A stretch of DNA of 55,976 bases from Akkermansia muciniphila (GTDB lineage Bacteria; Verrucomicrobiota; Verrucomicrobiia; Verrucomicrobiales; DEV007): contig CAMCXS010000035.1 of NCBI GenBank assembly GCA_945883495.1, forward strand, positions 1-55,976, read 5' to 3'. The notes under the pieces were generated by a model. It searched no databases, was not told where the DNA came from, and was given only the letters and a program-made list of their open reading frames with translations. Position numbers and translations under genes: made by a program. Position 1 is the first letter of the stretch, and every line of letters starts with the position of its first letter. Below, piece after piece: positions 5,265-11,985 of this stretch.

Positions 5265-9011
<3,747 letters not shown>

Positions 9012-9060
9012 TGGGTCGGAGTTTACGATGGGAACGGGCGGCTTCAAGGGGCAATTATCA

Positions 9061-9084
9061 TCATATCACGATATCAAGATATGA
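9061..9084 (-). promoter_or_regulatory. candidate operator in the metH leader
   Basis: Perfect 7-bp inverted repeat: TCATATC, 10-base spacer, GATATGA, with further ATATC/GATAT words inside the spacer. It lies 49 bp upstream of the metH ATG in an AT-rich patch of an otherwise GC-rich region. ATATC-type palindromes are, from memory, typical of ArsR-family regulators of methionine metabolism such as SahR; this link is inference. On the metH strand a GC hairpin (about 9094-9114) followed by GGGGTTTTTT lies just upstream and could end transcription entering from that side. Confidence 0.5.
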
Positions 9085-9199
9085 AAAAACCCCGCTCGCG
9101 CTTTCGCTTCGAGCCTTGCAAAGAATCCCATTGACACCGGGAGGGATCCCCGGGCTATATGTGGACTTCCGACGCAGAGAATTTTGAAACGATCATAGG

Positions 9200-10183
9200 A
9201 TGAGCGACCCGAACCAGGCACCGGATACAAAAACTCAGACGCTCCAGGCGCCGGACACCAAAACGTCCACTCTCCAAGCCCCGGACACGAAGACGTCCAC
9301 CCTTCAGGCACCAGACACGAAGACGTCGACGGTTCCGTTGAAGAAGGAAACCGTTCGGATCACTCTGAAAGCCACTCCAGGAGACTCCTCGGGTGTGGCC
9401 GCCGTGCCCCCGCCACCGCGGCCGGTGGCGCCCCCGGCGCCTTCCGCTCCACGCCCTCTGGCCCCGCCACCCGGAACCGGCGGCCCTCCGCGCCCCACCG
9501 CCGCACCGGCGGCTGTGCCTGCGCCGCCCGCCCCTCGGCCCCTGGCCCCAGGCGCCCCAGCTCCCGTAGCCCCACCACCAGCGTCGGGCAAGACCATCCC
9601 GCTCGTAAGCCCAGGCGCCCCCACGGCGGTGCCACCGCCGAAGCCATCCGTTCCGGCTCCGGTCTCAGCTCCAGGAGCTCCGGTCCCGCCCCCGCGGCCT
9701 GCCGCCCCGGCTCCGTCTGTCGGCGGTGTGCCTGCGCCGAAGCCTGTGGGCGCCGTCCCGCCGCCTTCCGTAGCCCCGGCTCCGGGGGTGGCTGCTCCCA
9801 AGCCCGCCGCGCCTTCAGCGGTCGGACCAGCTCCTTCCGCCGTGGCTCCGGCTCCCGGCGCCAAGACGATCCCTCTCAAGCCACCTGGAGCCACTCCGGT
9901 GCCTGCGGCGGCACCCTCTCCGGCCCCAGGAGCTCCTTCGGGGCCCAGGCCGCTGCCCAAGGCAACCGTCAAGCTCCAGCAGACCGCCCCCATGCAAAGG
10001 GGTGCTGCCACCACAGCGCTTCGTTCACCAGCCGCTACCAGTGTGTCCTCATCTTACGAGGATGAATACAGCGACGAGGCGGAAGAAGAGAGCGGTCTGA
10101 TGCCCTTCTCCATCATCGTGCTCGTGCTTTCGGTGGTGGTTCTGGTGATTGAGGTGTTGACCAAAATGGCCGGCGGAGCCTAA
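9200..10183 (+). CDS. proline/alanine-rich protein with 10-residue repeats and a C-terminal membrane helix
   Basis: 327 residues of unknown function. Residues 6-45 are four near-identical decapeptides, QAPDTKTSTL or a close variant. A short segment (KKETVRITLKATP) comes next, then ~190 residues of Pro/Ala/Val low complexity (repeated APPPRP, PAPGA) that would be extended and disordered. An acidic patch (YEDEYSDEAEEESG) precedes a C-terminal hydrophobic helix, MPFSIIVLVLSVVVLVIEVL. The layout suggests a tail-anchored or bitopic protein with a long flexible spacer and a short peptide-repeat head. The spacer could be an artefact-prone GC-rich region, but the frame is continuous and its two ends are clearly protein-like. 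The tail is copied in the downstream 25-residue ORF at 10226. Confidence 0.75.
   Translation: MSDPNQAPDTKTQTLQAPDTKTSTLQAPDTKTSTLQAPDTKTSTVPLKKETVRITLKATPGDSSGVAAVPPPPRPVAPPAPSAPRPLAPPPGTGGPPRPTAAPAAVPAPPAPRPLAPGAPAPVAPPPASGKTIPLVSPGAPTAVPPPKPSVPAPVSAPGAPVPPPRPAAPAPSVGGVPAPKPVGAVPPPSVAPAPGVAAPKPAAPSAVGPAPSAVAPAPGAKTIPLKPPGATPVPAAAPSPAPGAPSGPRPLPKATVKLQQTAPMQRGAATTALRSPAATSVSSSYEDEYSDEAEEESGLMPFSIIVLVLSVVVLVIEVLTKMAGGA
9215..9334 (+). repeat. four 30-bp in-frame tandem repeats
   Basis: Four consecutive 30-base units encode QAPDTKT(Q/S)T(L/V). Units 2-4 are almost identical at DNA level and unit 1 is more diverged (ACAAAAACT in place of ACCAAAACG). They are in frame with the host gene, so copy-number change would alter the protein by ten residues at a time. 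Confidence 0.9.
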
Positions 10184-10225
10184 ACACTGTTGCCGATGTT
10201 TCTTCAACCATAGCGGATTCCGACC

Positions 10226-10303
10226 ATGCCATTCGCCATTGCCGTCCTTGTTCTCTCCCTCCTGGTGCTCGTGCTGGAAATTTTTACCATGCTGAGTTCC
10301 TGA
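10226..10303 (+). CDS. 25-residue membrane peptide resembling the upstream protein's tail
   Basis: ATG 10226 to TGA 10303 encodes MPFAIAVLVLSLLVLVLEI followed by FTMLSS, one hydrophobic helix with a conserved Glu. It matches the C-terminal helix of the preceding gene (MPFSIIVLVLSVVVLVIEV then LTKMAGG) at about 15 of 23 aligned positions. It starts 42 bases after that gene's stop. This suggests either a real tail-only paralogue or the remnant of a duplicated tail exon-like segment. The short length leaves some doubt, but the matched start Met and shared Glu position argue for a coding sequence. No function can be assigned. Confidence 0.6.
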   Translation: MPFAIAVLVLSLLVLVLEIFTMLSS

Positions 10304-10468
10304 GGCTTGCGCCGGACGCTTTCCTCTCCGGCCGATGACGAACCCTGCCGAGGCTAGGCGATCCGCTTGACGATCCGCCCAGCCTGGGCAGTATTGCGTT
10401 ACGCCTTTGCCAGAACTCGCCGAGGGCTGGCCGCGCCGCAGAACTTTAAAACCTTTTTATCGCCCATC

Positions 10469-10798
10469 ATGGCCTCTGAATCCGTCATCGAACTCTCCGC
10501 CGATACTTTTACCGAACTCGTTGCCAACTCGCCCGTCCCCGTCATGGTCGATTTTTGGGCGGAATGGTGCGGTCCCTGCCGCCAACTCGCCCCAGTGATC
10601 GAAGCGCTGGCCAAGGAGGTCGGCGAGACTTGCAAGGTGGCCAAGCTGAACGTGACCGGAAACGAAGCGCTCGCTCAGCAATACAAGGTGACCGGCCTCC
10701 CGACGCTTCTCTTCTTCAAGGGAGGTGTGGAAAAGGACCGCGTCGTTGGCACCACCTCGAAGGATCGCCTCAAGTCCAAGCTGGAAGCGCTCCTTTGA
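10469..10798 (+). CDS. trxA: thioredoxin
   Basis: 109-residue cytosolic disulfide reductase. The active site WCGPC is at about residues 29-33 in VDFWAEWCGPCRQLAP. The cis-Pro loop (GLPTLLFFKGG) is near residue 75, and the length is standard for a single-domain thioredoxin. ATG 10469 is chosen because the family begins only a few residues before the first strand; the longer frame upstream gives a basic, non-homologous extension. A GC-rich hairpin directly follows the stop. No thioredoxin reductase is nearby. Confidence 0.95.
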   Translation: MASESVIELSADTFTELVANSPVPVMVDFWAEWCGPCRQLAPVIEALAKEVGETCKVAKLNVTGNEALAQQYKVTGLPTLLFFKGGVEKDRVVGTTSKDRLKSKLEALL

Positions 10799-10804
10799 GG
10801 CGGA

Positions 10805-10826
10805 GGGGGGCAAGTTTTCGCCCCCC
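10805..10826. terminator. GC hairpin between convergent genes
   Basis: GGGGGGC and GCCCCCC pair perfectly around an 8-base loop, immediately after the trxA stop and 13 bases before the stop of the convergent gene. It lacks a T run on either strand, so it may be a weak bidirectional terminator or an RNA 3'-end stabiliser. Confidence 0.45.
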
Positions 10827-10838
10827 CTGGAAGCCGTT

Positions 10839-11126
10839 TCACTGACCGGCCGCGCTCGCCCGAATTCGCTCCTTGGCCGCGTCACGGTCGTTGTTCAACG
10901 TGGAAAGGTCCCGGGCCAGCTGGGCTTGCAATTCCTGAAGTTCCCCGTAGTTGCCCGCCGCTCTGGCCTGATCCATCAGCCCCTTGAGGAACACTTCACG
11001 CTCGGCGATCTTCGCTTTGAATCGATTCTCAATTTCCGCGATCTCCGCGCGCTGTTCGTCAGTCAACTTCACTTGCGGATCGCTGGCTCCGAGGCGTTCC
11101 ATGGCTAGTTCGTAGGCAGATTTCAT
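10839..11126 (-). CDS. small helical hypothetical protein
   Basis: 95 residues, almost wholly predicted alpha-helical and charged. It contains a run of Glu/Arg/Lys heptads (LTDEQRAEIAEIENRFKAKI) then QARAAGNYGELQELQAQLAR, compatible with a coiled coil or helical hairpin. There is no signal peptide or membrane segment, so it is probably cytosolic. ATG 11126 shares CATG with the start of the divergent HAD gene. The longer frame upstream would overlap that gene by 100 bases and is disfavoured. It is convergent with trxA. Function unknown. Confidence 0.65.
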   Translation of the reverse strand: MKSAYELAMERLGASDPQVKLTDEQRAEIAEIENRFKAKIAEREVFLKGLMDQARAAGNYGELQELQAQLARDLSTLNNDRDAAKERIRASAAGQ

Positions 11127-11985
11127 GTCAGGCAATATCCCCAACTCTGAGGAAACCTCAACCGCGGCCCTCCCACCTTCCACGTTGGCTCCGCTCGGCC
11201 TGGGATTGATCAGCCTCGACTTCGACGGCACCTTGGTCGATTCGATGCATCCGTCCGATCACTCCGTGCATCCGTCGTTGGTGCGAGCCATCGAGCGCCT
11301 CCGGGCAGAAGGAGTCGTTTGGGTCATCAACACCGGCCGCACCTTGAGCGGCTTGAAGGTCGGCCTGGACATCGCGGGGCTGCCCTTTGCGCCGGACTAC
11401 GTCATCACCGAGGAAACCTCTCTCCTAGCTCCGTGCGCCGATCACCCGGAAGGCTGGAATGCCCTGGGAGACTGGAATCATGAGCGCGACCACGCCTTCC
11501 GCTCGTTGCTTGCGGAAAGCGGCCACGTTTTCGATGAGATCCGGGAGTTCGTCACCGCCCACACCCAGGCGGAATACCTGCAGCGGACCGACGGCTTGGA
11601 CGAGATCGTTGCCAACAGCGAAGCGGAGATGGAGCGTATCTGTCACCGCATCGAGGAAGTCCGCCACGCCCACGAAGCCCATCCACTCGGCTATCAGCGC
11701 AATACCGTTTACCTTCGGTTCGGGCATCGCGGGTATCAGAAGGGCTCCACCCTGACCCGTCTGGCCAGCTACCTTGAGATTCCCACGCAGCGGATCTTCG
11801 CGGCAGGCGACAACTTGAACGATCTCCCGATGCTCGATCCCGAAGTGGCGGGCTACCTAGCCTGCCCGGGAAACTCGCACCCCTTGGTCCAGGAAACGGT
11901 GCGCCGCCACGGAGGCTACTTGGCCCGTTCCCGCACCGGCGAAGGGCTTACCGAAGCGTTACGCTTCTTCGGGTTCGCCGGTTGA
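11125..11985 (+). CDS. HAD-superfamily hydrolase, Cof/sucrose-phosphatase-like (class IIB)
   Basis: 286 residues. Motif I is ISLDFDGTLVDS (nucleophile and acid/base Asp, about residues 30-41). Motif II is the Thr in WVINTGRTL. Lys and motif III/IV lie in the C-terminal part, with GYQKGSTLTRL and FAAGDNLNDLPML. The cap between ~100 and 200 is class IIB-like. Known relatives are cytosolic phosphatases of sugar phosphates or nucleotides; the substrate cannot be told. The first ~25 residues are low complexity (TSTAALPPSTLAPLG), so the true start may be internal. The 3' end overlaps the convergent gene at 11959 by 27 bases. Confidence 0.85.
   Translation: MSGNIPNSEETSTAALPPSTLAPLGLGLISLDFDGTLVDSMHPSDHSVHPSLVRAIERLRAEGVVWVINTGRTLSGLKVGLDIAGLPFAPDYVITEETSLLAPCADHPEGWNALGDWNHERDHAFRSLLAESGHVFDEIREFVTAHTQAEYLQRTDGLDEIVANSEAEMERICHRIEEVRHAHEAHPLGYQRNTVYLRFGHRGYQKGSTLTRLASYLEIPTQRIFAAGDNLNDLPMLDPEVAGYLACPGNSHPLVQETVRRHGGYLARSRTGEGLTEALRFFGFAG

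What the first reader, a model, noticed from the sequence alone, without database searches (positions are those of the whole stretch)
10226..10303. 25-residue membrane peptide that copies the tail of its neighbour
The peptide and the tail of the 327-residue protein share MPF(A/S)I..VLVLS..VLV.E(I/V), about two thirds identical over 23 positions, and lie 42 bases apart. Tail-only copies could modulate oligomers of the full protein.
Basis: seen in the sequence. Interest (0 to 1): 0.6.

Follow-up and report, generated by a model that had tools for sequence, protein, structure and literature searches.

The report
Detached copy of a protein's membrane anchor
Next to a gene for a long, floppy membrane-anchored protein these bacteria carry a tiny gene that encodes little more than a second copy of that anchor; it has been kept by selection in most of a bacterial order, so it looks like a real small protein, and its job is still unknown.

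Summary
Window 10226-10303 encodes a 25-aa membrane peptide, 42 nt behind the 327-aa gene and identical to its tail at 14 of 25 positions (z 9.5 against shuffles). It is almost certainly a real gene. Under one strict rule a membrane mini-ORF follows the large gene in 110 of 151 distinct loci of the order (Verrucomicrobiales), 0 of 17 loci of other orders, and behind 0 of 293 other genes of this genome. Codon-position differences (0.23/0.13/0.47) show protein-level selection. Outside the order, thioredoxin follows the large gene directly in 14 of 17 loci; inside, the mini-ORF lies between them. A profile built only from tails of other orders recognises the mini-proteins, 71 of 86 in one register starting at Met-1, including a polar residue inside the membrane. 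The mini-protein therefore most likely descends from a duplicated tail early in the order; silent sites are randomised, so the copy is old. Best mechanism (inferred): a free transmembrane helix that packs with the anchors of the large protein. About 22% of in-order loci lack it, and strong likeness to the own tail is limited to 42 of 93 loci. Modulation of oligomers is plausible but untested.

The parts
9200..10183 (+). Large gene, 327 aa: Pro/Ala/Thr-rich body (disorder inferred from composition) with TSTVPLKKETVRITL and LPKATVKLQ motifs, acidic stretch, C-terminal membrane anchor; no cysteine
   Evidence: no Pfam, NCBIfam or PHROGs family; homologs in 275 of 386 genomes of the order at E up to 0.01
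9215..9334 (+). Four near-identical 10-residue repeats (QAPDTKTSTL type) near the start of the large protein
   Evidence: seen directly in the translation
10100..10180 (+). Tail of the large protein from M301 (MPFSIIVLVLSVVVLVIEVLTKMAGGA): membrane anchor, the segment that the mini-ORF resembles
10184..10225 (+). 42-nt spacer; no strong Shine-Dalgarno-like site (-3.3 kcal/mol), no terminator-like site found
10226..10303 (+). Mini-gene: 25-aa single-helix membrane protein MPFAIAVLVLSLLVLVLEIFTMLSS, a detached copy of the anchor
10469..10798 (+). Thioredoxin (109 aa, WCGPC), third gene of the cluster
   Evidence: TIGR01068 113.9 bits, above its cut-off of 96.8; PF00085; conserved third position in many relatives

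Best explanation
Shown: 10226-10303 has the marks of a genuine protein-coding mini-gene, and such a mini-gene lies behind a large Pro-rich, C-terminally anchored protein gene, and in many genomes before a thioredoxin gene, in most sampled loci of the order Verrucomicrobiales. Strongly supported: the mini-protein descends from the large protein's own C-terminal anchor; the older, class-wide unit was large gene plus thioredoxin, and a copy of the anchor, starting at the anchor's first residue, became a separate ORF early in the order. Inferred: the mini-protein inserts as a single transmembrane helix and packs against the anchors of the large protein, using the shared polar residue in the membrane (often Gln in out-of-order tails; Asn, Glu or Gln in the mini-protein), so that a formerly homomeric helix bundle becomes a mixed one. 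Lineages that lost the mini-gene would have gone back to the tail alone.
For: Pair conserved: strict rule 110 of 151 in-order loci, 0 of 17 out-of-order, 0 of 293 control genes; seen in all six family codes of the order, f5 and f6 by one locus each. Coding: codon-position differences 0.234/0.125/0.474 over 35 pairs chosen by the large protein; pN/pS 0.24 over 37 pairs chosen by peptide similarity, which lowers it. Descent from the tail: a profile of 17 out-of-order tails gives the 86 distinct mini-proteins a mean of 3.7 against -10.5 for shuffles, more than the reversed sequence in 81 of 86, register at Met-1 in 71 of 86 against about 10% of shuffles, Asn/Glu/Gln at the tails' Gln column in 55 of those 71; 68 of 86 above the 95th percentile of 102 control membrane segments. 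Tied to the large gene more than to thioredoxin: no thioredoxin motif was found in the fetched stretch behind 46 of 93 pairs, mostly Prosthecobacter-type loci. In 11 loci that I picked from the window's family, own pairs match better than swapped pairs (permutation p 0.0015), while silent codons are randomised, so likeness is held at protein level.
Against: No interaction, expression or structure data. 33 of 151 in-order loci lack the ORF, so it is dispensable in some lineages; the thioredoxin tree of 77 loci, which is poorly resolved, needs at least 8 presence/absence changes, and renewed gain is not excluded. Likeness to the own tail is weak in 51 of 93 loci (z of 3 or less), and for many loci tails of other genomes score better than the own. 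Lys/Arg occur after residue 18 in 62 of 93 mini-proteins and within the first six residues in 1 of 93, which by the positive-inside rule (recalled) suggests N-out, whereas a tail anchor without signal peptide should be N-in; the helices might then be antiparallel. The p 0.0015 ignores shared ancestry and rests on hand-picked loci.
Confidence: 0.6

Rival explanations
1. It is a small membrane subunit of some other complex (for example one using the thioredoxin) and only happens to be encoded beside the large gene.
For: Hydrophobic mini-proteins beside larger genes are a known kind (CydX, abstract of PMC4325964); thioredoxin follows as well in 101 of 151 in-order loci.
Against: The pair stays together where no thioredoxin was found (46 of 93 loci), and the mini-protein matches the out-of-order tails of the large protein in register, which an unrelated subunit would not.
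Confidence: 0.2
2. It is a leader peptide whose translation controls the downstream thioredoxin gene, its amino-acid sequence being secondary.
For: It lies upstream of thioredoxin; the stop-to-thioredoxin gap in 69 loci with the ORF is 139-469 nt.
Against: Amino-acid-changing positions are disfavoured; the ORF persists where no thioredoxin was found; in the window no Rfam hit and no terminator-like site on the plus strand.
Confidence: 0.08
3. It is a toxic hydrophobic peptide of a type I toxin-antitoxin pair (Hok, TisB, DinQ type).
For: Size and hydrophobicity fit (compare DinQ, abstract of PMC3567139).
Against: One copy found in the own genome, behind the same gene across an order and derived from that gene's tail; no sigma-70-like promoter on the minus strand between the ORF and 11200 (other promoter types are not covered).
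Confidence: 0.04
4. Chance ORF or decaying relic of a recent duplication.
For: None beyond short length; 33 of 151 in-order loci lack it.
Against: 0 of 293 control genes, codon-position pattern, ATG in 91 of 93, presence in six family codes, silent sites randomised.
Confidence: 0.01

Closest known systems
CydX and similar accessory micro-subunits (KdpF, DltX)
   Same: Single membrane helix under 50 aa encoded with the larger partner; some operons lack it; sequence tolerant of change (CydX: outlines and abstracts of PMC4325964 and PMC6005532; KdpF and DltX named in passages of PMC10903887).
   Different: Those are not known, as far as I recall, to be copies of a segment of their partner; here the mini-protein matches the partner's own anchor in register. 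The partner is a Pro-rich tail-anchored protein of no known family, not a respiratory or transport enzyme.
Single-helix type I toxins such as DinQ
   Same: Short hydrophobic peptide (DinQ: outline and abstract of PMC3567139).
   Different: No antisense promoter predicted here, fixed position behind one gene over an order, protein-level selection.
Small membrane proteins suggested to derive from signal sequences (passage of PMC10903887)
   Same: A detached hydrophobic segment of another protein becomes a gene of its own.
   Different: Here the source is the C-terminal anchor of the neighbouring gene, and out-of-order relatives show the state without the mini-gene.

Membership tests
Accessory membrane micro-subunit encoded beside its partner (CydX-like way of working) | Single-helix protein under 50 aa | tested here: met
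   21-31 aa in 93 loci as analysed, 11 of them after cutting a longer frame to an internal ATG; three f2 genomes (G116, G130, G190) carry an extra acidic tail to more than 50 aa
Accessory membrane micro-subunit encoded beside its partner (CydX-like way of working) | Conserved gene next to one partner gene | tested here: met
   110 of 151 in-order loci by the strict rule; 0 of 293 control genes
Accessory membrane micro-subunit encoded beside its partner (CydX-like way of working) | Physical association with, and need for, the partner complex | not testable with these tools
   needs co-purification and deletion
CydX family proper | Encoded with cydAB | tested here: not met
   neighbours in the window are the large gene of no known family and thioredoxin; no Pfam family matched the peptide
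Paralog of the large protein's anchor | Sequence match in one register beyond composition | tested here: met
   register at Met-1 in 71 of 86, real above reversed in 81 of 86
Type I toxin | Antisense RNA over the toxin gene | tested here: inconclusive
   no sigma-70-like promoter on the minus strand between the ORF and 11200; other promoter types not covered
Type I toxin | Growth arrest on expression | not testable with these tools
   bench test

The most novel reading that the evidence does not exclude
A detached-anchor device: early in an order of bacteria the membrane anchor of a multivalent scaffold was duplicated as a free helix that sets how many scaffolds cluster in the membrane; anchor and free helix then co-evolved. 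Loci without a separate mini-gene nearly always keep a Met at the anchor's first residue (31 of 32 called, against 23 of 75 called in loci with the mini-gene), so they could still make the free helix by starting translation inside the large gene. Caveats: shared ancestry; a pattern match that mis-places some anchors in both groups; one of the 31 (L149) is cut by its contig end and may have the mini-gene; and the Shine-Dalgarno-like score at that Met is not stronger in loci without the mini-gene.
Probability: 0.22. Interest if true: 0.72.

Novelty: new variant of a known kind. Interest (0 to 1): 0.55.

Why it matters
Membrane microproteins are known, but where they come from and how they recognise a partner is mostly open. 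Here the origin can be read: relatives without the gene, lineages that lost it, and a copy still aligned residue by residue with the partner's anchor. That allows a direct test of whether a free transmembrane helix controls clustering of the protein it came from. It also brings to light a class-wide gene pair (Pro-rich tail-anchored protein plus thioredoxin) for which my searches found no description; it occurs in the cultured Roseibacillus ishigakijimensis (L103), and the large gene with its mini-gene, without a thioredoxin found behind it, in the cultured Brevifollis gellanilyticus (L070).

Tried and rejected
Read-through or fusion of the two ORFs: in the window the ORFs share a frame, but across 93 loci the distance modulo 3 is 0, 1 or 2 in 35, 28 and 30 cases, so frame is not kept.

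Recent DNA duplication or gene conversion: rejected; even where 22 of 26 residues agree (L007), 8 of 20 comparable codons are the same against 9.5 expected from codon usage.

Shine-Dalgarno comparison (anti-SD letters from recall): mini-genes and large genes mostly lack a strong site, so it cannot rank starts; the score at the tail anchor is weaker, not stronger, in loci without the mini-gene (mean -2.7 against -4.7), which does not support internal starts.

Remnants of the mini-gene in loci that lack it: 1 of 29 gaps tested at p 0.02 or less, about chance. The stop-to-thioredoxin gap in 32 such loci is long (median 215.5 nt, range 14-442) against 36.5 nt (12-93) in 14 out-of-order loci.

Known families: no Pfam, NCBIfam or PHROGs match for the window's large or mini-protein; four further family proteins gave no Pfam match above cut-off. 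Rfam: none in 9000-11200. Literature: seven searches of the open library listed no paper on this gene pair; subscription papers are not covered. The first profile, at phylum level, matched 21 of 387 genomes, 20 of them in the order.

Sampling and rows dropped: loci come from capped lists (80 of 99; part of the 275 genomes; 19 of the 34 out-of-order genomes listed). Of those 19, one had no profile hit (L274) and one ended at the contig end (L268), leaving 17. One search left out L026 (unrelated protein), L005, L008, L009 and loci without a candidate before forming the 93; one search collapsed these to 86 distinct peptides. One search dropped duplicates and loci with under 300 nt downstream. The relaxed rule also finds 10 of 293 control genes over 270 nt. 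Thioredoxin was sought by motif in the fetched stretch only; L028 and L092 had under 300 nt. Structure prediction was not run: the peptide is below the 30-aa limit and the tool's description offers no complexes.

Full report
What was claimed and what is there. The ORF at 10226-10303 (+) encodes 25 residues, starts with ATG and lies 42 nt behind the 327-aa ORF 9200-10183. Against the tail of that protein 14 of 25 residues are identical without gaps, score 73 against 26 for shuffles (z 9.5). In the own genome the search with the tail gave only these two places. Downstream, 10469-10798 is a thioredoxin (TIGR01068); upstream on the other strand is a B12-dependent methionine synthase. The large protein has no match in Pfam, NCBIfam or PHROGs.

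Is it a gene? A search of 38 genomes (the own one included) with the tail gave 27 with a match and, in many, a second short match just downstream. A profile of tails found the large gene in 275 of 386 genomes of the order at E up to 0.01. A scan of named genomes gave 99 relatives, of which the best 80 are kept, with titles naming Verrucomicrobiota, most of them MAGs and among them the cultured Brevifollis gellanilyticus and Roseibacillus ishigakijimensis. Of 127 distinct loci, 93 were analysed as having a short single-helix ORF behind the large gene, at a median of 42 nt, 91 of 93 with ATG (11 longer frames had been cut to an internal ATG). Under one strict rule (ATG 8-90 nt after the stop, 20-31 aa, membrane stretch) 110 of 151 distinct in-order loci pass, 0 of 17 loci from other orders and 0 of 293 other genes of this genome. 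A relaxed rule, run up to the thioredoxin or 300 nt, finds 118 of 151 and 0 of 17; over 270 nt it finds 10 of 293 control genes. In 35 pairs chosen by the large protein, differences per codon position are 0.234, 0.125 and 0.474. In 37 pairs chosen by peptide similarity, which lowers the ratio, pN/pS is 0.24. This is protein-level selection.

Where does it come from? A broader tail profile matched 96 of 384 genomes of the class, 34 of them outside the order. I fetched 19 of these 34; 17 could be judged. In those 17 loci, from eight families, no mini-ORF is present and in 14 a thioredoxin starts 12-93 nt behind the large gene. The large-thioredoxin pair is thus the wider unit and the mini-ORF an addition in the order, seen in all six family codes sampled: f1 24 of 39 loci, f2 24 of 27, f3 3 of 3, f4 14 of 14, f5 and f6 one of one each, and 51 of 66 named loci without code. 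The f5 one lies 196 nt away and fails the strict rule. A position profile built only from 17 out-of-order tails (16 of them from these loci) recognises the mini-proteins: 68 of 86 distinct peptides score above the 95th percentile of 102 other membrane segments of this genome (Mann-Whitney p 3e-26). With the background set to the pooled composition the mean is 3.7 against -10.5 for shuffles; 81 of 86 beat their own reversal; and 71 of 86 align in one register in which Met-1 falls on the residue before the tail's Pro-Phe/Leu position, a register that about 10% of shuffles choose. At the column where the tails carry Gln in 9 of 17, the mini-proteins in that register carry Asn, Glu or Gln in 55 of 71. 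The tails still attached in the order fit the same profile about as well (mean 2.1 against 4.1 for the mini-protein, which is higher in 55 of 93). I take this as descent of the mini-protein from the tail. The silent sites between the two copies are randomised, so the event is old.

How the copies relate today. Likeness between mini-protein and own tail exceeds shuffles (z over 3) in 42 of 93 loci and not in 51. It is highest in part of the window's family (22 of 26 identical in L007). Among 11 loci that I picked from that family, own pairs score better than swapped pairs (p 0.0015; 46 of 55 comparisons positive, 8 negative), which fits co-evolution but ignores the tree. Over all 93 loci own tails average 34.3 against 30.5 for swapped ones, and for many loci other genomes' tails score better than the own.

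Loss. 33 of 151 in-order loci lack the mini-ORF, mostly in the window's family (one genus code above all), plus a few f2-type loci, among them two of genus code g19. On a poorly resolved thioredoxin tree of 77 loci at least 8 changes are needed, 5 of them forced by well supported branches. Most of the lacking loci belong to a clade whose thioredoxin reads HCGPC instead of WCGPC (24 lacking, 3 having).

Mechanism. Shown: a conserved frame under protein-level selection, a membrane-like helix, and linkage to the large gene also where no thioredoxin motif was found behind it (46 of 93 loci). Inferred: insertion in the inner membrane and packing with the anchors of the large protein. The large protein's body is rich in Thr-x-x-hydrophobic motifs (z over 2 in 86 of 89), as might be expected of a multivalent binding scaffold; a free helix that mixes with its anchors would set the valency of clusters. 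Orientation is unresolved: Lys/Arg occur after residue 18 in 62 of 93 mini-proteins and within the first six residues in 1.

Comparison. It works most like CydX-type accessory subunits (outlines and abstracts of PMC4325964 and PMC6005532), but it is no member of a family that I could name, and as far as I recall those subunits are not copies of their partner. Toxin and leader-peptide readings fit worse (see rivals). Seven literature searches listed no description. Verdict: real, old, undescribed as far as could be searched; new variant of a known kind.

Noticed in passing
window 9200-10099 and homologs, e.g. L258-L275: The large protein carries repeats of the type K[KR]ET[VIAS][RK]I.LP, T[IV]PL and LPKATVKL; Thr-x-x-[LIVM] is enriched over shuffles with z over 2 in 86 of 89 in-order proteins. 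The spacing resembles, from recall, the phospho-Thr motif read by FHA domains.
   Followed up: partly
thioredoxin behind the large gene in the clade of L029, L043, L060: The thioredoxin active site is HCGPC in place of WCGPC in 27 loci, and 24 of these lack the mini-gene.
   Followed up: partly
L216/L257 (G116), L217/L250 (G130), L252 (G190), all f2: The mini-protein continues after the helix into an acidic tail (e.g. ...EPADEPADDSEDMEESEE), making it more than 50 aa.
   Followed up: no
L021, L022, L033, L036 (f4, Prosthecobacter-type): Behind the pair stands not thioredoxin but what looks like a PfkB-type sugar kinase (name recalled from the GGGPVATALC stretch, not tested).
   Followed up: no
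L029 (G001, contig C146 of 4923 bases): Genome G001 has a second large-thioredoxin locus on a short contig that groups with the HCGPC clade; possibly contamination of that assembly.
   Followed up: no
many f2, f3, f4, f6 and some f1 homologs of the large gene: The large protein continues some 20-60 residues (by eye) beyond the anchor, whereas the window clade and most out-of-order relatives seen end right after it.
   Followed up: partly
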